Part shown: positions 1,601 to 9,917 of the stretch, in pieces
Position numbering within the stretch: position 1 is the first letter of the stretch
Layout: every line of letters starts with the position of its first letter
Position numbers and translations under genes: made by a program
Notes under the pieces: model-generated
What the model was told of the DNA's origin: nothing
Seen by the model: the letters and a program-made list of their open reading frames with translations, nothing else
The model's database searches: none
From: Cyclobacteriaceae bacterium
GTDB taxonomy: Bacteria; Bacteroidota; Bacteroidia; Cytophagales; Cyclobacteriaceae
DNA length: 35,025 nt
Reading direction: 5' to 3'
Assembly (NCBI GenBank): GCA_013140555.1
Contig: JABFSO010000051.1
Location: 1-35,025, forward strand

Positions 1601-4600
1601 TTAATTTTTTGCTGGAAAATAAGAACCTATAGCTCCGTCTGACATATAATAAAAATGTATTTCTACTTTTCCATCGCTTGATAATCCAAAATATTCATTA
1701 CTACCGGGCTTTGTAGGATCATATTTTCCATTATTATTTGCAATTGCATACTCTACTTCATCTAATATTTTAGCCTCATTCCAAGCATCTGGGAAGAATG
1801 TAGATTTACCCGCATTATTTGTCTTAACTAATTCAGTACCATTTTGCAATTTGATTACTGGGTTAGCTTCATACACTCCATTACCGCTTGCATCCATTAC
1901 CTTGTTTCTAAATTCAAATGTTGCTGTTCGGTTGTTGGCTATGTAGTCATCTAATGCAATTTTACTATGACATCCGTTAAAACCTGTGTTGCTAGCATTG
2001 ATATCTATTCTTAAAACATGAGATTTTTTAGCTATTACTTTATTTGTAATGTCAGTGACTTCAATCCAATTGGCGTGTTTGATACCAAGCCAATTTTTAA
2101 TGTTCTGGAATTCTGCTTCAGAAACATTCTTCGGCTTATATCCCTTCGTAGCTAAATAATTTAGCTCCTGAGCGTAAGCGCCTTTTAAATTCCCTGCTGC
2201 ATCAACTATATCTGCTTTGGTAGGAATTGTGGCAAGATAAATGTCATCTCCTCTCTCAATTGCCTTCTCAAGCCAAGGTTTGTTGTAAGCGCTCCACCAA
2301 GAAGATGCATCATAATAGTAATCAGGTTTATTAAGAATATTTATGCCTCCCTTTGTTTCGCCAAGTCCCACATTTTTAAACGAACCAAATTCATTAAGTA
2401 GATTTGCAATGTCAGGCCTAAATCTCCCAAGTATTGTGGTTACCTTACTTGTACTGAGCGAAACGGTTCTTCCGGAAATAGTTAATTGCCTTGAAACAAC
2501 TCCCGAAAGCACTTTTAACTTATCAGAATTGGTCAATAATAAATCTGATAATTTGGTTTTAAACACATCATCACTAACATTTAATACAGATGACTTGAAT
2601 GCTCCAAAGTCATCATTGAAAACAGCAAAAGCATTATAGTTGCCGTTAGTGTTTCCCAATAATATTCTACCATCATCCAAGTCAAATTTAACATAGTAGC
2701 CATCGGTTAAAACCGCATCATACAAAGATGTACCCGTTTCATTTGCAAAAGATTTTGCATTTGATAAAACATTAGTATTGGGGTTGGCCCAAATTAAATT
2801 TGTTTCGTCAAGGTTCTTCCATGAAATATTTTCAGAAGATGCCTTACCTATTAATTTATTTAGTGAGCCAGATATAATACCATTATTACTTGCGACAACT
2901 TTACTGCTTTCGATATAATTCGCTTGGTCGTCTAAAAGCTCTACAAATTCTTCTTGCTGAGAAAGTTTTTGTTTAGTCGCATCATCCAAGTTATCCCAAC
3001 CACCTCCAGGCCTTTTAAGATCGGCAAGGTATTTTTTAAATGTTTGGATCTGAACCGATAAAAATAAGCGTAAACTTTGTTTGTTTTGAATAGCTGTATT
3101 AACGTAATCGGGGATATTTTTTATTACATTCTTTACTCCTTTGGCTGCATTTTTTAATCCCACGACTGCCATCACTACATTGAAGGCGTTTACGGTCTTA
3201 GCATAGTTTGAATTGGGGTCGATGCTTCCCGTGTTGATAGCAATATTACTTCCAGCTGCCACTATTTCAGTAATTGCCCAGATTCTCCTTGCCCAAGTAA
3301 CCTTTGTTGCAAGAGCGACACCACCACTTGTTGCGATTGTGATGGCATCAAAGGTGATCATAACACCTTTTTCTACTGCGTCATTAAATTCCTTTTGTGT
3401 TTTGTATTGCAAAAAAATAGCAGGTACTACGCAAAGGTTTTCTCCTATCGGTTCAATTCCATTTATCACAGATTCAACTAAAGGGAGTTCCTGCTTAGTC
3501 AATATTATAATAGGGTCAAGAGGACTTAATTGGACCGGATCAAAGTCATCGTCTTTTACCCAAGATGGGACTGAAATGCTTCCATTTGGGGAGGTCGTAG
3601 AGACTAAGTATTTGACATACCTTTTTATTTCGACTCTAGCTCCATTTAGATCACCTTCAAATTTGGCTTCTCCAAGCGCTGGCATTAAAATATCAATGAT
3701 TGGTCCATTGCTTGGCGCAGAGAACTTGAAAGGAGCCAATGAAACAACCTGCCCAATAAGATCTGTGTTTGTAAAAGGCTTTATTCTTTCTATCCAGATT
3801 TCAGGCTTGAGTTTGTAAATAGCACAAAGACCACTAATGAAAGACGTGAAATTATCACCATCCCAAGGATTAATAGATTTGTCTTGAATTTTGGAAATTA
3901 GGTTCAATAACAACTTGTTATCTGCTTTCTCAAGTAATGCGATAAAATCTTTGTAATTAGAAGAATTGATTGCTGACATCAATCGCAAGATTGTTATCTC
4001 CCTTTTCTCCCATATCGACTCACTCGAATTTCCCAACTGTTCAATCCCTTTACTCAAATTTTCCCAGGTCAACCTTCTAAGGGCTGCTAAACAGACACCT
4101 CCGTCATATACCAAACCGGTTAATTCATCATTAGTGAAACTTTGTCTGGCAAAAAGCTTTTCTAATTTTTCAGAATCTGATTCAATTTTTAAAATTGAGC
4201 ATTGATTTGAATTTTTATCCTTTGAAATCAAGGACAATAGAGAGTTTATCATTGTACATGAGGCATCTGGTTTGAATAAGCTTAATGTCTCCCAGTTTGG
4301 CTTTTGCTCATTGATTTTTAATTTAATGGTCTCTTTTATTGAAGTGGGATCCGAAGGTTTTACCCAAGCAGTTAAATTGCATATACTATAAGTACATTGA
4401 TCGTTTAGGATCGCAATCATTGCATTCCCAGAACTCGAGACTTCAACAGAATAGGGCATCTCTTTACTTGATGCATCTCGATAAACTACTTTTCCAGCTT
4501 CTATAAAAGCGTTGTAAGAAGCTAAAAGGGTTTTGCTCTCATCATCCGTATATTCACGGTATCCTGTTCTCAAATAGGGTCTATCTTTGTCTAGTGTTCC

Positions 4601-7429
4601 GACCAGTTTCCTACCTGGAACTCCAAATACAACTCTTGTAATAATGTTACCAACCAAATCAATGCCATCGTTAATTCTATTTTCCGAATCCTTATCATCC
4701 TCAAACAATCCCATCACAATCTCCGGATAGCGCATCCTGTCCCATTGGTATTTGTATAATGCAGTGCCAGACAATGTATAATCCATCAGGTTGTTGGTAC
4801 TTCCTTGAGGCTTCATTGTATATTTCTCATCCGCAAATGGGTGCTGCAGCGTAAATGCGCCATGGCCCAACTCATGCGCTATCGTGCGGACTATCGCTTC
4901 CTCGCTGCCATTTTTATCAACGAAAATAAATCCGCACTCTTTGCTGCGTGGCATGAAGCCCGCCAACGTGCTTCTCTTGGGGTTCTTTACTAAAAACAAA
5001 TAGTAGGTATTAGGCTGTAGGTTTGCCTTGTAGGCATTCACTACTTTGCGCATGTCGGGGCTGTAGTTACTCAGCAGTCCACTGCCGCCATCGTCAAACG
5101 GATCGATACCCGGCACATCGAAATTGGAAGCAAAGGTGATGTTCCACTTTACTACTGCCTGTCCATAAATTTTATTGAGTTGTGTGCGCAGTACATCTTC
5201 GCTGTAAGGATACTTGTTTCCATTTACCGGAACGATCACCAAGTCTTTAACAATTTGATCGTAGGTAATCACACTCAGTTTACCTAGGACTTGAGTCTTG
5301 GTCACTGGTGAATTGTCATTGGTCACTGGGGCTTGCGCATCGTAGAGAGCGATGAGTTCGCTTTCCACACCGTCTCCGGCACCTAAAATGCTAATAGTAG
5401 ATTGGTCATTGGTCATTGAGGTGGAGCCACCATTGACTAGTGACCATTGACTATTGACCATTGCCCCATTAAGTTCAAAGCGTATCTTTGATTTATCGAT
5501 GCCAGTCCCTTCAAGCTGCGCAATGACATTGTCGGCCTGCCCTGTGGCAACAGACTTCCACGAGAGGTATTGGTCTTCTACTTTTGTGTAGGTAGACGCA
5601 ATCGGATCATACCGTTTTGCATCAAAGCCAAACTTCTGATCTTGTGCTTCTGCAAACTTTAATTTGAGGTTGTACTCGCGCTTAGCAGCTGCTGTTGCAA
5701 TAGCGGCTGTGGTGGTGTGTACTTTTCCTTTACTGTCAATAATATATCCTTTGCCACTGCTATCTACCACCGAAGCAGTAGTACCCGCAGGTACTTCCGT
5801 GCGCTTACCGCTTCCATCTACAATCACCACGCTACCATTGCTGCCTGGCGTAACCGTAGCTGTGCCCGGCACGGTGATTAGTGTGCTGGTGACGGCTGCG
5901 TTTTCATCAAACTGTTGGGGAAGATTCCTCTCAATGCTATCGAGTTTTTGATCGATCTTGTTCAACGTCTCGCTCAAATCATCCATCAGAGCCATCACGC
6001 CTGCTGGGATCACTTCTACTCCGGCTCCGGTCACGTTCATGTAACCGTTCACCATCCGCATTTCATTGTTGACGTTGATGTTGGTGAACTCGGCTTTTAC
6101 TTTTGCCTGATTGAAATACGAAACTTCAATCACGCCCTCACCCGAGAAGGTGCCGTTGCTGCCTGACACTTTACTGAGCACCACATCAAAATCTCCTGCC
6201 TTAATGACATCGCCTATTTTCAAGCTATTGATTAACTGCGAGGGGTCCAGATTAAATGGAGTAAGTGGAACACCACATGAATATTGAATGCCCGGATTAT
6301 CTTTGGTGGTCACATTTGTCACTAGCGAATAGTCACTCGTGAAGGTGCCACAACCGGCATTGACTTGAAATTCGTAGCGTGTGTTTGGCTGAAGTGAGTT
6401 GACGGTCACATTTGGCGTAAGTGATTGATTCGTGTACCAGTTACCCGTATTTGCAAATCGATAGCGCAGCGCATAAGTCGTTTGATTCGATGCTCCATCC
6501 CAACTCACATTAAAGCGCGTAGTTCCCACATCGCTAACCGAAATATTTTTTGGAGGTAAACAGGCATCGCCATATACAAATGTGTAGACCTGACTGTAGC
6601 CATTGTTTTTGAAAAGACTTAGTTCGTCCGCACCCGCATACGCATGTGCACGCAGCTGAAACGCATAGCGCCTGCCCGGCTCCAGCGGTGTTTCGGCAGG
6701 GCCATAGATGATTGTCGTTTCACTGGTCGTAGTTTGAAAAATAACCGGTGACGTTAATATCGCATCATTCGGGTTGCGTGTGGACGGCCAAACTTCCACT
6801 AACTTAAAATCATACTCCGCATTGAATGCGCTGTTGGGGGTGCCCCGATGGCGAGGTGTCCACTGGAAGATAACTTGTTGTGGATCTTGAATGCGAATCT
6901 TCTCATTGTCGGCCGGCACGTTTACAATAGGAGGATCATTTAAAATCAACCAAGCTACTGCGCATCCGGTATTCGAAATTTTAACACCGCGATTGTATTC
7001 GATTACTTCAAAACAAAATTGATAAAGGCCTTCCGGCAAAGCACCGCGTTGTTCGATCTCGCGTTGCGTGATGCCGGTGAAATTTAAATTGCGCGGATCG
7101 AAGTAAGCCGCCAGATCAGAGCTGATCAATTGCAATGGTACACCACCCAACAACGTAACAGGCGGTGGCATGAACTCCGGCTTCGTCTCAATTTTTATTC
7201 CATTGCCCTCGATGCGTAAGCGAAAGCGAACGTTCAGTTCAGGACGGGTAGCATCAATCAGGAAAGCCGTTACCCGTAATCGCTCCGAACCCGGTGCCGC
7301 ATAATCCGACAGGTACAATGAATACGGAGGCGTCAACTGCACCGTGGATTGGACGGGGAAGACTTGGCCCTCACTCATTAATGAGGCCACCGTCAATAAA
7401 AAAAGTAATATGGTTTTAATTCGTGTCAA
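1601..7429 (-). CDS. Polymorphic toxin: fibronectin-III, zinc-protease motif, C-terminal EndoU-type nuclease
   Basis: A 1942-residue exported protein. A short signal peptide (hydrophobic ILLFLLTVASL) precedes a beta-rich N-terminal region, a fibronectin-III domain (about 287-375) and a short coiled coil (about 480-510). A metzincin-like motif, HELGHGAFTLQH, has zinc-ligand candidates H852, H856 and H863, catalytic E853, and a possible Met-turn NLMDY (Met about 882). The region about 960-1660 is mostly helical and low in GC. A pre-toxin module (about 1664-1810) contains YYDASSWWSAYNKPWL. The last 127 residues match the bacterial EndoU nuclease pattern: GCHS with candidate catalytic His 1821, STFFPDAWNEAKILDE around 1876, and a final SYFP. 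There is no T9SS tail, so the route across the outer membrane is unknown. The only usable start is a TTG inside a heptamer array; an in-frame TGA lies two codons upstream and no ATG fits. Two further heptamer arrays are translated within it. The nuclease call is by motif memory, not a search. Confidence 0.85.
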   Translation of the reverse strand: MTRIKTILLFLLTVASLMSEGQVFPVQSTVQLTPPYSLYLSDYAAPGSERLRVTAFLIDATRPELNVRFRLRIEGNGIKIETKPEFMPPPVTLLGGVPLQLISSDLAAYFDPRNLNFTGITQREIEQRGALPEGLYQFCFEVIEYNRGVKISNTGCAVAWLILNDPPIVNVPADNEKIRIQDPQQVIFQWTPRHRGTPNSAFNAEYDFKLVEVWPSTRNPNDAILTSPVIFQTTTSETTIIYGPAETPLEPGRRYAFQLRAHAYAGADELSLFKNNGYSQVYTFVYGDACLPPKNISVSDVGTTRFNVSWDGASNQTTYALRYRFANTGNWYTNQSLTPNVTVNSLQPNTRYEFQVNAGCGTFTSDYSLVTNVTTKDNPGIQYSCGVPLTPFNLDPSQLINSLKIGDVIKAGDFDVVLSKVSGSNGTFSGEGVIEVSYFNQAKVKAEFTNINVNNEMRMVNGYMNVTGAGVEVIPAGVMALMDDLSETLNKIDQKLDSIERNLPQQFDENAAVTSTLITVPGTATVTPGSNGSVVIVDGSGKRTEVPAGTTASVVDSSGKGYIIDSKGKVHTTTAAIATAAAKREYNLKLKFAEAQDQKFGFDAKRYDPIASTYTKVEDQYLSWKSVATGQADNVIAQLEGTGIDKSKIRFELNGAMVNSQWSLVNGGSTSMTNDQSTISILGAGDGVESELIALYDAQAPVTNDNSPVTKTQVLGKLSVITYDQIVKDLVIVPVNGNKYPYSEDVLRTQLNKIYGQAVVKWNITFASNFDVPGIDPFDDGGSGLLSNYSPDMRKVVNAYKANLQPNTYYLFLVKNPKRSTLAGFMPRSKECGFIFVDKNGSEEAIVRTIAHELGHGAFTLQHPFADEKYTMKPQGSTNNLMDYTLSGTALYKYQWDRMRYPEIVMGLFEDDKDSENRINDGIDLVGNIITRVVFGVPGRKLVGTLDKDRPYLRTGYREYTDDESKTLLASYNAFIEAGKVVYRDASSKEMPYSVEVSSSGNAMIAILNDQCTYSICNLTAWVKPSDPTSIKETIKLKINEQKPNWETLSLFKPDASCTMINSLLSLISKDKNSNQCSILKIESDSEKLEKLFARQSFTNDELTGLVYDGGVCLAALRRLTWENLSKGIEQLGNSSESIWEKREITILRLMSAINSSNYKDFIALLEKADNKLLLNLISKIQDKSINPWDGDNFTSFISGLCAIYKLKPEIWIERIKPFTNTDLIGQVVSLAPFKFSAPSNGPIIDILMPALGEAKFEGDLNGARVEIKRYVKYLVSTTSPNGSISVPSWVKDDDFDPVQLSPLDPIIILTKQELPLVESVINGIEPIGENLCVVPAIFLQYKTQKEFNDAVEKGVMITFDAITIATSGGVALATKVTWARRIWAITEIVAAGSNIAINTGSIDPNSNYAKTVNAFNVVMAVVGLKNAAKGVKNVIKNIPDYVNTAIQNKQSLRLFLSVQIQTFKKYLADLKRPGGGWDNLDDATKQKLSQQEEFVELLDDQANYIESSKVVASNNGIISGSLNKLIGKASSENISWKNLDETNLIWANPNTNVLSNAKSFANETGTSLYDAVLTDGYYVKFDLDDGRILLGNTNGNYNAFAVFNDDFGAFKSSVLNVSDDVFKTKLSDLLLTNSDKLKVLSGVVSRQLTISGRTVSLSTSKVTTILGRFRPDIANLLNEFGSFKNVGLGETKGGINILNKPDYYYDASSWWSAYNKPWLEKAIERGDDIYLATIPTKADIVDAAGNLKGAYAQELNYLATKGYKPKNVSEAEFQNIKNWLGIKHANWIEVTDITNKVIAKKSHVLRIDINASNTGFNGCHSKIALDDYIANNRTATFEFRNKVMDASGNGVYEANPVIKLQNGTELVKTNNAGKSTFFPDAWNEAKILDEVEYAIANNNGKYDPTKPGSNEYFGLSSDGKVEIHFYYMSDGAIGSYFPAKN
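5301..5328. repeat. In-gene heptamer array (GTCAYTG type), four units
   Basis: Four in-register 7-base units: GTCACTG, GTGAATT, GTCATTG, GTCACTG. A short stretch of the second repeat family (CCTAGGACTTGAG, 5283-5295) adjoins it. The array lies inside the toxin gene and is translated as PVTNDNSPVTK. The unit whose TGA would fall in the reading frame is the degenerate one, so the frame stays open. Confidence 0.75.
5405..5461. repeat. In-gene inverted heptamer arrays with a GGTGG-AG-CCACC core
   Basis: Two GTCATTG units (5405-5418) are followed by the perfect inverted repeat GGTGG-AG-CCACC (5420-5431) and then four units of the opposite orientation: TGACTAG, TGACCAT, TGACTAT, TGACCAT (5434-5461). 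The whole block can fold back on itself. It is translated within the toxin gene as MVNSQWSLVNGG and STSMTNDQ. Confidence 0.75.
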
Positions 7430-7553
7430 TGGTCAGTGGTCAATAGTCAATAGTCATTGGTCATTAAGTCATTAGTCATTAAGTCGATAGTCATTGGTCA
7501 TTAAGTCAATAGTTAGTAGATGGTCTTACTAATGAATATTGACAAATGACTAT
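7425..7553. repeat. Left heptamer array flanking the four-helix-bundle gene
   Basis: From 7425 to about 7515 the sequence is a tandem series of GTCAATG, GTCAGTG, GTCAATA, GTCATTG and GTCATTA units, with occasional one-base spacers. It ends with a reversed stretch (ATTGACAAATGACTAT, about 7538-7553), so GTCAATAGTTAGTA and TACTAATGAATATTGAC can pair as an imperfect hairpin. The array overlaps the TTG start of the toxin gene on one side and touches the stop codon of the four-helix-bundle gene on the other. Confidence 0.85.
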
Positions 7554-7967
7554 CTATATATCATTTAAGCCATAGGGTTCTATTGGTTCATTTATTTCTT
7601 TTGAGTCTGGTTTCGGGCCGATCGTTTTTATATAGTTGTTTAGCATTTTTACTAAAATAGTCAATGAAGCAGAATACTCGGAAAATCTTTGCTCACTTAT
7701 TAGGTTCCGGTTTTTAGCCTTCGTCAACCAAGTCTTTGTTTCGTACAGAGAACCACGAGAATAATAGGCAAAATTCTTTTCTTCCTTAAAATGATATCTG
7801 CCATAACCTTCACTCAAATTTGCCGCAATAGAATCTACTGCTCGTATCAATTGCTTTCCTACCGTGTCCTTTTCTAAATAATTCCAACCGGTTACATCCT
7901 GCCACACTTTCTCTCCTATTTCCATTGCCTGATTGTAAATCTTCAAATCATTCAAGTTTTTGCTCAT
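7554..7967 (-). CDS. Four helix bundle protein (23S rRNA intervening-sequence protein family)
   Basis: A 137-residue protein with the hallmarks of the 23S rRNA intervening-sequence (IVP) / four-helix-bundle family: a short N-terminus NDLKIYNQAMEIGEKVW, the diagnostic AANLSEGYGR (about residues 48-57), then FAYYSRGSLYETKTWL and a last long helix. The usual family length is about 115-125 residues, so the C-terminal NEPIEPYG-type tail is a small extension. Relatives are found inside split 23S rRNA genes, as scattered orphan genes, and as the Avd accessory protein of diversity-generating retroelements. No rRNA or reverse transcriptase is present here. Heptamer arrays in opposite orientation flank the gene on both sides, and it interrupts an otherwise coherent gene train, so I infer it was inserted. 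Its molecular function is not known to me beyond possible nucleic-acid binding. Confidence 0.9.
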   Translation of the reverse strand: MSKNLNDLKIYNQAMEIGEKVWQDVTGWNYLEKDTVGKQLIRAVDSIAANLSEGYGRYHFKEEKNFAYYSRGSLYETKTWLTKAKNRNLISEQRFSEYSASLTILVKMLNNYIKTIGPKPDSKEINEPIEPYGLNDI

Positions 7968-7991
7968 ATCCTCACCGCTTACCTGTACTAA

Positions 7992-8067
7992 ACATTGGTC
8001 ATAGGTATTGATTACAAATGACTAATGACTACTGTCTATTGACCAATGACTAATGACCATTGACCAG
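7992..8067. repeat. Right heptamer array flanking the four-helix-bundle gene
   Basis: Seven perfectly phased 7-base units run from 8019 to 8067: TGACTAA, TGACTAC, TGTCTAT, TGACCAA, TGACTAA, TGACCAT, TGACCAG. Their orientation is opposite to the main part of the left array. The inner end (CATTGGTCATA, 7993-8003) is reversed and can pair with the first units. ACAAATGACTA occurs at the inner edge of both flanking arrays (about 7542 and 8014). The array ends three bases from the barrel gene's stop codon. Confidence 0.85.
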
Positions 8068-8070
8068 CAA

Positions 8071-9837
8071 CTAAAACGAATACACATACCCAAGCGTGGC
8101 AGTAAATTCCGTGAAGGATTTTGCTGCGCCTTCTTGTACGCTGTTTCGATTTACTACTACTGTGCTTAAGTTAATATTATGTTTCTTTTTAATCGACACG
8201 TTGCCGGACAATCGGCCATTTAAAATACTTCCGGTATGCAAACCATTGGCATACGACTCGTTGTGCGAGATCGAAGCGGTGGTTCGTAACTTTTTTTCAA
8301 AGAACTGTTTTGTAACTGCTACCGTTGGACCGAAGGTGCGTGACTGCGATGCAACGCCATCGCTCATACTTAAATTGAATGAAGTTGAAAGAGTTAAGCT
8401 CTGTGGCGTGAGCGACAGGCTATAGGATGAATTGAAATTATAAAACCGCAATCCGGAATTTTGTTCTACTTGTCCCTGCTTATCAGAAGCATCTTGCGCG
8501 GTCAGGTTAAGGCTGATAGTTTGTCGCCTGTTTTTATTGTTGCCCAACTGATACATGGAATTAATGTTGGCGTTCTGGCTGATTTGTGTGAAGTTGAGTG
8601 TATCTAAAAAATCAAACTGTGTGAGTCGGTTGATGTTCACAAACTGCGAACGGACATTGGTGAACGATTGAAAGCTCGAATAGGAAACTGACAAATTAAA
8701 TTTCTGTGACGGTGCAAAGGCTACATTCAAAGCTGTCACCACCCGCCTCATGGTAGTGGCTTTGCTCTCATCGAGGTTATCGCGCTGCGTGCCTACGTTG
8801 GCCGACAAATTTACTTTGCCCTGTAGTACTGACGTGGCCGCGTTGACTGTAATGTTTTCTAAGTCGTTGTTGAAAAAATAGGAGCCTAATGTTCTGTATT
8901 GCGGGTCGATGCGTTCGTAACCCATTCCCACTGAATAACCGTTGCCCTGGTAGGTGACATTGGCCTTCATCGCATTGTAGTAAGATGATGATGTGCGCGG
9001 AGTGAATAGGCCACCCACATTACCTAACGGATTTTCAGTGGTGGTTTGACCTGCGCGCGTATCTCTGGTGATCGCGCTGGTAGCCCACTCAAATCGTAGT
9101 AATAATTTTTGGAACAATGATTTGCCTCCGGTAAATCCCAGAACTAAATTTTCCTGCGGCAAGATGCCTTGTGTCTCGGGTACGAAACGGATTGATTGCT
9201 GTTCGTCCTGTGCGCGGAACACAATGGCTTCCACAAAATCTTTTCCATCGCCATAGCCAACCTTCATGCCATATCCATAACGATCATACGCAGCTTGTAC
9301 TCTTGATCCGGCCGTTGTGTCGGGCTGAACCGCTTTTAAAAAGCGACCATAGAGCGCACTGATTCGTAATTTACTAGTTGGATTCGCATCTACTCCTACT
9401 CCACTGAATAAGTGACCACCTACGGTGTAAGGCGAAAAATTCATACTCGTAAATCCGGCATGAAGCGTAATCCACTTGTAGGTGGGATGCATTGAAAATT
9501 GATTGAAGGGTTGCTGGAATGAAACTCCCTGATTGGAGTAACTAAAGCTCAGCGGAATACTCCAACCATACAAACTCACATTCAAATTTCCGGTAGCATA
9601 ATACGAATAGGGATCACGCCTGCTGTCGATTCCACTGGCGGCATATCCAATCTGACTCAACGAAACACCACCTGATAATTTTATTGGTTTCTCTTTACCG
9701 ATGGTCTCCAAGTTCTGCGAAAAACTATTGAGAGAAAGAAAAAGCAGACATACCAATACAATGACCTTTGGACTTAGGACTTGGGTATTAGGCCAAGTCG
9801 CTACTCCAAAATCTTTGTATCTAAACAACGTGCTCAT
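8071..9837 (-). CDS. Outer-membrane beta-barrel protein, 588 residues
   Basis: An exported protein whose hydrophobic signal core (VIVLVCLLFLSLNSFSQ) begins only at about residue 25. The mature part is a run of alternating-hydrophobicity strands with many Tyr, Phe, Gly, Ser and Asn, closing with GYVYSF, a terminal aromatic typical of outer-membrane barrels. It is longer than PorP/SprF-type barrels (about 300 residues) and I recognise no named family. The first 24 residues are odd: a second-family heptamer array encodes NTQVLSPK in front of the signal core, so the original start may have lain closer to it. It follows the adhesin gene after 75 bases and is probably in the same transcript. A role as membrane anchor or export partner for the adhesin or toxin is inference from context. 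Confidence 0.8.
   Translation of the reverse strand: MSTLFRYKDFGVATWPNTQVLSPKVIVLVCLLFLSLNSFSQNLETIGKEKPIKLSGGVSLSQIGYAASGIDSRRDPYSYYATGNLNVSLYGWSIPLSFSYSNQGVSFQQPFNQFSMHPTYKWITLHAGFTSMNFSPYTVGGHLFSGVGVDANPTSKLRISALYGRFLKAVQPDTTAGSRVQAAYDRYGYGMKVGYGDGKDFVEAIVFRAQDEQQSIRFVPETQGILPQENLVLGFTGGKSLFQKLLLRFEWATSAITRDTRAGQTTTENPLGNVGGLFTPRTSSSYYNAMKANVTYQGNGYSVGMGYERIDPQYRTLGSYFFNNDLENITVNAATSVLQGKVNLSANVGTQRDNLDESKATTMRRVVTALNVAFAPSQKFNLSVSYSSFQSFTNVRSQFVNINRLTQFDFLDTLNFTQISQNANINSMYQLGNNKNRRQTISLNLTAQDASDKQGQVEQNSGLRFYNFNSSYSLSLTPQSLTLSTSFNLSMSDGVASQSRTFGPTVAVTKQFFEKKLRTTASISHNESYANGLHTGSILNGRLSGNVSIKKKHNINLSTVVVNRNSVQEGAAKSFTEFTATLGYVYSF
9765..9792. repeat. Second-family heptamer array inside the barrel gene start
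   Basis: Three phased units, GGACTTA, GGACTTG and GGTATTA (9770-9790), with matching flanks. Read on the minus strand it is nearly the same as the array at 9884-9917, so the two form an inverted pair about 90 bases apart. It is translated near residue 20 of the barrel protein. Confidence 0.7.
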
Positions 9838-9883: not shown

Positions 9884-9917
9884 TCCAAGTCCTAATCCCC
9901 AAGTCCCAAGTCCTAAA
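9884..9917. repeat. Second-family heptamer array at the adhesin stop codon
   Basis: Phased units TCCTAAT, CCCCAAG, TCCCAAG and TCCTAAA (9890-9917), preceded by TCCAAG. The TAG stop codon of the SprB-repeat adhesin (9913-9915) lies in the last unit. The array is inverted relative to 9765-9792. Confidence 0.75.

What the first reader, a model, noticed from the sequence alone, without database searches (positions are those of the whole stretch)
5283..5461. Heptamer repeats translated inside the toxin gene, with in-frame stops avoided
Two repeat blocks lie within the coding region and encode peptides such as PVTNDNSPVTK and MVNSQWSLVNGG. Because the unit is 7 bases, every third TGAC unit on the coding strand would place TGA in frame. 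In the first block exactly that unit is changed (TTCAC in place of TTGAC); in the second the TGAC-oriented series stops after two units. This is the pattern expected of a spreading repeat filtered by the reading frame.
Basis: seen in the sequence. Interest (0 to 1): 0.7.

Follow-up and report, generated by a model that had tools for sequence, protein, structure and literature searches.

The report
Spreading seven-base repeats inside genes
A seven-base repeat that clutters the spaces between genes in this group of Bacteroidota has also written itself into tolerant loops of proteins, including an essential tRNA-charging enzyme in which related species carry different repeats in the very same loop.

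Summary
Two blocks of the family TGAC(C/T)A(A/T) lie in the 1942-aa ORF 1601-7429(-), an fn3/zincin-like/EndoU polymorphic toxin, and exceed dinucleotide, synonymous and codon-order shuffles. Thirty homologues lack the extra 7-9 residues at both places. Among four near-orthologues (81-91% identical), two share the TGAC repeat at block 1, one carries a different heptamer (TCCYAAK) and one is empty. A third loop of the gene is empty in the window but holds heptamers in G197 and a palindrome in G196. The repeat family inside the gene matches the one just upstream.

The same repeat writes the same peptide (MVNSQWS) into valyl-tRNA synthetase. Across 28 species of the genus that loop is 7-periodic in 13, with several heptamer families; none is periodic at the other (non-multiple) lags tested.

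Intragenic arrays are rare (2 of about 25 clusters in this genome). Credible ones have the orientation that can stay open; the opposite orientation occurs only broken or at start codons. "Spreading repeat filtered by the frame" is thus largely right, but stop avoidance alone is circular, and part of block 2 is ancestral coding sequence. The kind is known (heptamer repeats; coding repeats of Rickettsia); recurrent overwriting of one loop by different repeats looks new.

The parts
1601..7429 (-). Host ORF, 1942 aa, TTG start: signal peptide, fn3, zincin-like HELGHG motif, EndoU_bacteria C-terminal domain (polymorphic toxin)
   Evidence: PF14436 E 9.3e-13; PF00041 E 1.8e-12; weak TANFOR match below cut-off
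5298..5332 (-). Block 1: TGAC-oriented heptamers with a broken third unit (TTCACC); residues about 700-711, PVTNDNSPVTK; 7-8 aa longer than the closest family homologues
   Evidence: 30 homologues lack it; TGAC type in L076 and L079, TCCYAAK type in L077, absent in L078
5402..5415 (-). Block 2, TGAC-oriented two units (SMTNDQST); partly ancestral coding sequence (NDQST)
5434..5463 (+). Block 2, GTCA on the coding strand, four units, residues 657-666 MVNSQWSLVN; block 2 as a whole is 8-9 aa longer than distant homologues
7425..7526 (-). TGAC heptamer array at the 5' end of the toxin gene; the array's TTGAC supplies the TTG start codon, with an in-frame TGA of the array just upstream
7554..7967 (-). 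S23 four-helix-bundle gene (23S_rRNA_IVP) between two heptamer arrays
   Evidence: PF05635 E 1.5e-25; present in G196 (97%), different in G197 (59%), a 30-aa remnant in G198
8012..8067 (+). Intergenic TGAC heptamer array
9766..9793 (-). Second heptamer family (TCCYAAK) coding about TWPNTQVLSPK near the N-terminus of the neighbouring 588-aa ORF
9890..9917 (+). Second heptamer family (TCCTAAT CCCCAAG TCCCAAG TCCTAAA) between the 588-aa and 2164-aa ORFs, running up to the latter's stop

Best explanation
The two blocks are in-gene copies of a dispersed, intergenic heptamer repeat. The genomes of this genus carry several unrelated heptamer families, which grow in 7-base steps. Shown: in-gene blocks of different families at homologous positions in different species, absent from homologues; family matching between the gene and its own upstream spacer; periodicity of 7 bases and no other. 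Inferred: new copies are seeded by short-range copying from nearby arrays (slippage, template switching or conversion at microhomology) and survive in coding sequence only where the protein tolerates them (loops and linkers) and where the frame stays open. That means the GTCA orientation with TGG rather than TAG at each third unit, or a TGAC orientation broken at each third unit, with net length changes in whole codons (21 bases = 3 units is the neutral step). The peptide itself most likely has no function beyond being tolerated.
For: 30 homologues at 28-51% identity lack both insertions. Near-orthologues show three states at block 1. Upstream spacer and block 1 share their family in all three repeat-bearing orthologues whose spacer is known (window, G196, G197), and G198 lacks both. 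Third site: the fn3 loop is empty in the window and G198, +10 aa of TCCYAAK heptamers in G197, +23 aa of a palindromic sequence in G196. ValRS of this genome carries the same peptide MVNSQWS from the same repeat; its loop is 7-periodic in 13 of 28 genus members with different families and never at lags 4, 5, 8, 10, 11 or 13. Loop families tend to match the genome's own arrays: CAGTCRG in G238, 14 matches against 0-4 elsewhere; TCTCAAA in G240 and G198. Arrays avoid coding sequence: 21 intergenic and 2 coding in loci that are 89% coding. The credible coding arrays are in GTCA orientation.
Against: The ValRS loop keeps its length in most species, so simple insertion is not the whole story; overwriting, or gain plus loss, is needed. 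G017 has few TCTCAAA arrays outside ValRS, so no obvious seed there. G199, basal in the toxin gene tree, shares block 1 with the window while G198 lacks it, so block 1 was lost in G198 or moved by recombination. Only two independent genes with homologues carry TGAC-type blocks. No mobility machinery was demonstrated.
Confidence: 0.8

Rival explanations
1. Selection on the protein for flexible S/N/Q/T/P-rich linkers, coded by chance with similar codons; no DNA-level process.
For: The positions are linker-like and the peptides are polar; the low-confidence model places block 1 between strands 128-139 and 150-162 of the segment.
Against: The periodicity is 7 bases, not a multiple of 3, in block 2 and in 13 of 28 ValRS loops; the same DNA repeats dominate intergenic arrays; synonymous shuffles do not give it.
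Confidence: 0.05
2. The heptamers travel with S23 (23S_rRNA_IVP) four-helix-bundle genes as one selfish unit, and the in-gene blocks are local spill-over from such a unit upstream of the toxin gene.
For: An S23 gene sits between arrays in the window and in G196; G197 has a different S23 (59%) together with a different heptamer family; G198 has only an S23 remnant and neither upstream array nor block 1. S23 next to arrays also in G132 and G055; none by tblastn in about 970 kb of other sampled sequence. The Coxiella IVS has tandem heptamers GACAGAT before its S23 ORF (PMC4990558).
Against: Most arrays in this genome have no S23 gene nearby; only three independent S23-array loci; S23 genes were sought with one query sequence.
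Confidence: 0.2
3. The repeats are functional recombination sites for swapping toxin modules or for phase variation.
For: In G199 homology to the toxin begins at residue about 680, just after block 2; heptamer copy-number changes could shift the frame.
Against: ValRS, a housekeeping gene, carries the same repeats; the blocks are not at the variable C-terminal junction; the units are imperfect; no frame-shifted copy of the toxin blocks was seen.
Confidence: 0.07
4. Assembly artefact or chance resemblance.
For: The genome is a 498-contig draft.
Against: The same blocks occur in independently assembled genomes (L076, L077, L079) and exceed all shuffles.
Confidence: 0.02

Closest known systems
TAACTGA heptamer direct repeats of Beggiatoaceae, Cyanobacteria and Bacteroidetes (MacGregor 2015, PMC4679880)
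   Same: Seven-base tandem direct repeats, mostly intergenic, often abutting start codons; inside ORFs mainly in the orientation that does not create stops; mixed heptamer families; sporadic distribution
   Different: Different unit; no homologous-site comparison showing different families in one protein loop; there mostly at protein ends, here inside a toxin and ValRS
Cyanobacterial STRR heptanucleotide repeats
   Same: Degenerate tandem heptamers dispersed in intergenic DNA (from my own knowledge; not tested here)
   Different: Different sequences and phylum
Rickettsia palindromic elements in protein genes (RPE; Ogata 2000, reviewed in PMC2229807)
   Same: Dispersed intergenic repeats found in frame inside conserved protein genes
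   Different: RPEs are 105-146 bp palindromes with terminal inverted repeats; here short direct heptamers, although palindromic sequences share the same loops in G196, G199 and G209
Borg tandem repeats creating disordered regions in proteins (PMC9879509, title and abstract only)
   Same: Rapidly evolving, independently arising tandem repeats inside ORFs
   Different: Archaeal extrachromosomal elements; not a dispersed chromosomal heptamer
Coxiella burnetii 23S rRNA intervening sequence with S23 ORF (PMC4990558)
   Same: S23 ORF preceded by tandem heptamers of variable number
   Different: Located in rRNA, different heptamer, no protein-coding insertion

Membership tests
Dispersed bacterial heptamer direct repeats (LSSR/STRR/TAACTGA-like) | Unit of exactly seven bases, in tandem | tested here: met
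   Lag 7 (and its multiple 14) stands out; lags 4-6 and 8-13 do not
Dispersed bacterial heptamer direct repeats (LSSR/STRR/TAACTGA-like) | Many dispersed copies, mostly intergenic | tested here: met
   About 25 clusters in the genome; 21 intergenic and 2 coding arrays in the sampled loci
Dispersed bacterial heptamer direct repeats (LSSR/STRR/TAACTGA-like) | Unit TAACTGA itself | tested here: not met
   Unit is TGACYAW (and TCCYAAK), not a rotation or reverse complement of TAACTGA
RPE-type protein-coding repeat | In-frame intragenic copies of an intergenic repeat, absent from homologues | tested here: met
RPE-type protein-coding repeat | About 100-150 bp palindromic element with terminal inverted repeats | tested here: not met
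   Blocks are short direct heptamers
EndoU polymorphic toxin (host gene) | EndoU_bacteria domain at the C-terminus of a secreted multidomain protein with variable C-termini | tested here: met
   PF14436 at 1843-1940; orthologues align only to about residue 914-956
S23-associated selfish element | Linkage of S23 genes to heptamer arrays | tested here: inconclusive
   Three independent linked loci, none in about 970 kb of other sequence, but most arrays have no S23

The most novel reading that the evidence does not exclude
Certain protein loops, above all the ValRS loop before the QDEDVLDTW motif, are recurrent landing or overwriting sites where each species writes its own currently active heptamer (or palindromic) repeat into an essential protein, by a 7-base copying process, possibly linked to S23 four-helix-bundle genes, that has not been described.
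Probability: 0.35. Interest if true: 0.75.

Novelty: new variant of a known kind. Interest (0 to 1): 0.58.

Why it matters
Heptamer repeats in bacteria have been catalogued for decades without a mechanism. A conserved housekeeping loop that carries different heptamers in closely related species gives a clean, alignable readout of how such repeats arise, switch family and grow, and shows noncoding repeats feeding new sequence into essential proteins. The possible linkage to S23 genes, hinted at independently in Coxiella, offers a testable candidate driver.

Tried and rejected
An AlphaFold model of the toxin segment from four sequences was poor (mean pLDDT 46), so loop placement rests on alignments plus weak local strand predictions. 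A random sample of 360 kb of the genome held no further strong lag-7 segments in coding or intergenic DNA, so coding arrays are rare. The larger composite intergenic units on contig C476 (GTCTCGCAACAC boxes joined to both heptamers) were read but not resolved. Protein-level selection and assembly error were considered and rejected. The idea that TTCACC was mutated from TTGACC to avoid the stop is not supported: it is shared across species. Papers linking heptamers to S23 genes: only the Coxiella case was found.

Full report
Observation. The family is TGAC(C/T)A(A/T). In the window it occurs 28 times as a two-unit match with up to two mismatches against 3.5 in shuffles. Within the ORF, three exact two-unit matches compare with a mean of 0.16 (maximum 2) in 500 synonymous-codon shuffles and none in 500 codon-order shuffles; the best 28-base window at lag 7 scores 22, which no shuffle reaches, while lags 4-6 and 8-13 peak at 14-17. 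The repeat is one of the genome's own: 59 exact two-unit matches in about 25 clusters, against 2 for the reversed pattern.

Host gene. The protein has a signal peptide, an fn3 domain, a HELGHG metalloprotease-like motif and a C-terminal EndoU domain, so 'toxin gene' is fair; the blocks lie between the fn3 and zincin-like parts, not in the toxic domain.

Insertion test. The 340-residue segment was searched in 196 genomes of the family; 38 have a relative. Aligned, 30 homologues at 28-51% identity lack the repeat peptides; against the closest of them the window is longer by 8-9 residues in block 2 and 7-8 in block 1.

Orthologues. Four much closer copies came from genome contigs: L076 (91%), L077 (85), L078 (83) and a fragment L079 (81). 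The DNA alignment shows three states at block 1: TGAC heptamers in the window, L076 and L079; a different heptamer array (CCCAAGTCCTAATTCCCAATTCCCAATTCCCAAAACCCAAG) in L077; nothing in L078, whose YPGDKKDQVLG resembles the distant homologues. L077 and L078 also show that the NDQST part of block 2 is ancestral coding sequence rather than insert. A third site was found: the fn3 loop near residue 326 reads RFANTGNWYTN in the window and L078, carries ten extra residues of TCCYAAK heptamers in L077 and 23 extra residues of a palindromic sequence in L076.

Local matching. The window, L076, L077 and L078 have the same gene order: 2164-aa ORF, 588-aa ORF, S23 gene (or its remnant), toxin. Directly upstream of the toxin, the window and L076 have TGAC arrays, which even supply the TTG start codon; L077 has TCCYAAK arrays; L078 has no array there, although it has a TGAC array one spacer further up. 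Thus the family inside the gene matches the family next to it. The S23 gene varies in parallel: 97% identical in L076, 59% in L077, a 30-residue remnant in L078.

A second protein. On contig C139, valyl-tRNA synthetase reads EEAFAQLSMVNSQWSIDEIRQDEDVLDTW: the peptide MVNSQWS again, from five GTCA-oriented units. In the ValRS of relatives the same loop carries decayed TGAC-type repeats in G197 and G196, TCTCAMA heptamers in G198, four TCTCAAA units in G017 and a palindrome in G199, while G137 and the more distant family members have none. Extending to the genus, 13 of 28 species reach 16 of 21 matches at lag 7 in the loop, none at lags 4, 5, 8, 10, 11 or 13, and none elsewhere in the gene except one hit that appears at every lag (G241, read as a masked run). 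The families include TCAATGG, TCTCAAA, CAGTCGG, AGTTCAA and GTCAACA types. Many loops keep the same length (46 residues between the anchors); three have 53, that is plus 21 bases or three units (G238 with heptamers, G199 and G209 with palindromes). The G238 family is abundant in G238 (14 matches) and nearly absent elsewhere; TCTCAAA is common in G240, G198 and G199. G017 is the weak case.

Frame filter. Among three-or-more-unit arrays in the sampled loci, 21 are intergenic and 2 coding in this genome; in loci of four relatives 51 are intergenic, 5 coding and 3 at gene edges (some loci there overlap). The coding arrays in genes with homologues (toxin, ValRS) all have GTCA on the coding strand, where a stop (TAG) is avoidable by using TGG; TGAC-oriented arrays occur at first codons, in one short doubtful ORF (L264), or broken as in block 1. 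This supports filtering by the frame, but with two independent genes it is a small sample, and lack of stops in an open ORF is by itself circular.

Distribution. Three-unit arrays of this family occur in 17 of 196 genomes of the taxonomic family and four-unit arrays in 11 of 395 of the phylum: sporadic, as reported for other heptamers (PMC4679880). The genus members G137 and G017 lack the TGAC family.

Mechanism. Shown: coding copies at homologous sites with family turnover, 7-base periodicity, avoidance of coding DNA, local matching. Inferred: slippage in 7-base steps plus short-range copying at microhomology (for example the ancestral CAAGTCCTAGG next to block 1 resembles TCCYAAK, the family found there in L077), with survival only in tolerant loops. 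A role for S23 proteins is a lead: arrays flank or adjoin S23 genes in the window, G132 and G055, no S23 was found by tblastn in about 970 kb of other sampled sequence, and the Coxiella IVS has heptamers before its S23 ORF (PMC4990558).

Comparison. Heptamer repeats in ORFs were described by MacGregor 2015 and in-frame selfish repeats in conserved proteins by Ogata 2000 (via PMC2229807). What I have not found described is one housekeeping loop occupied by different repeat families in related species. The literature search was limited to the open-access library.

Noticed in passing
G000:C139:6542-7324 (L132, L142) and ValRS loci L143-L160, L277-L302: ValRS loop before QDEDVLDTW carries 7-periodic repeats of different families in 13 of 28 species of the genus.
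   Followed up: yes
window 7554-7967: S23 (23S_rRNA_IVP) gene between heptamer arrays; S23 type and heptamer family change together in orthologues.
   Followed up: partly
L076 9234-9252 (fn3 loop of the toxin, G196) and L146 1924-1943 (ValRS, G199): Palindromic sequences inserted in frame in the same loops that carry heptamers in other species; a GTAGCTTYAGCGAAGGNGGA pattern also occurs in 12 viral-contig stretches.
   Followed up: partly
L126 (G000:C476) 5385-8374: Composite intergenic units: GTCTCGCAACAC box, then TCCYAAK heptamers, then TGACYAW heptamers, then GTTGACAAATGGGCAATTGAC; repeated many times.
   Followed up: no
window 7427-7429; L270 1767; L265 1690: Heptamer arrays appear to supply the start codon (TTGAC or ATGAC) of the downstream gene.
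   Followed up: partly
L079 9953-11971: Toxin fragment in G199 whose homology starts just after block 2, suggesting a breakpoint there.
   Followed up: partly
L283 (G247:C77): ValRS with an in-frame TAA inside the repeat-bearing loop; sequencing error or a disrupted copy.
   Followed up: no
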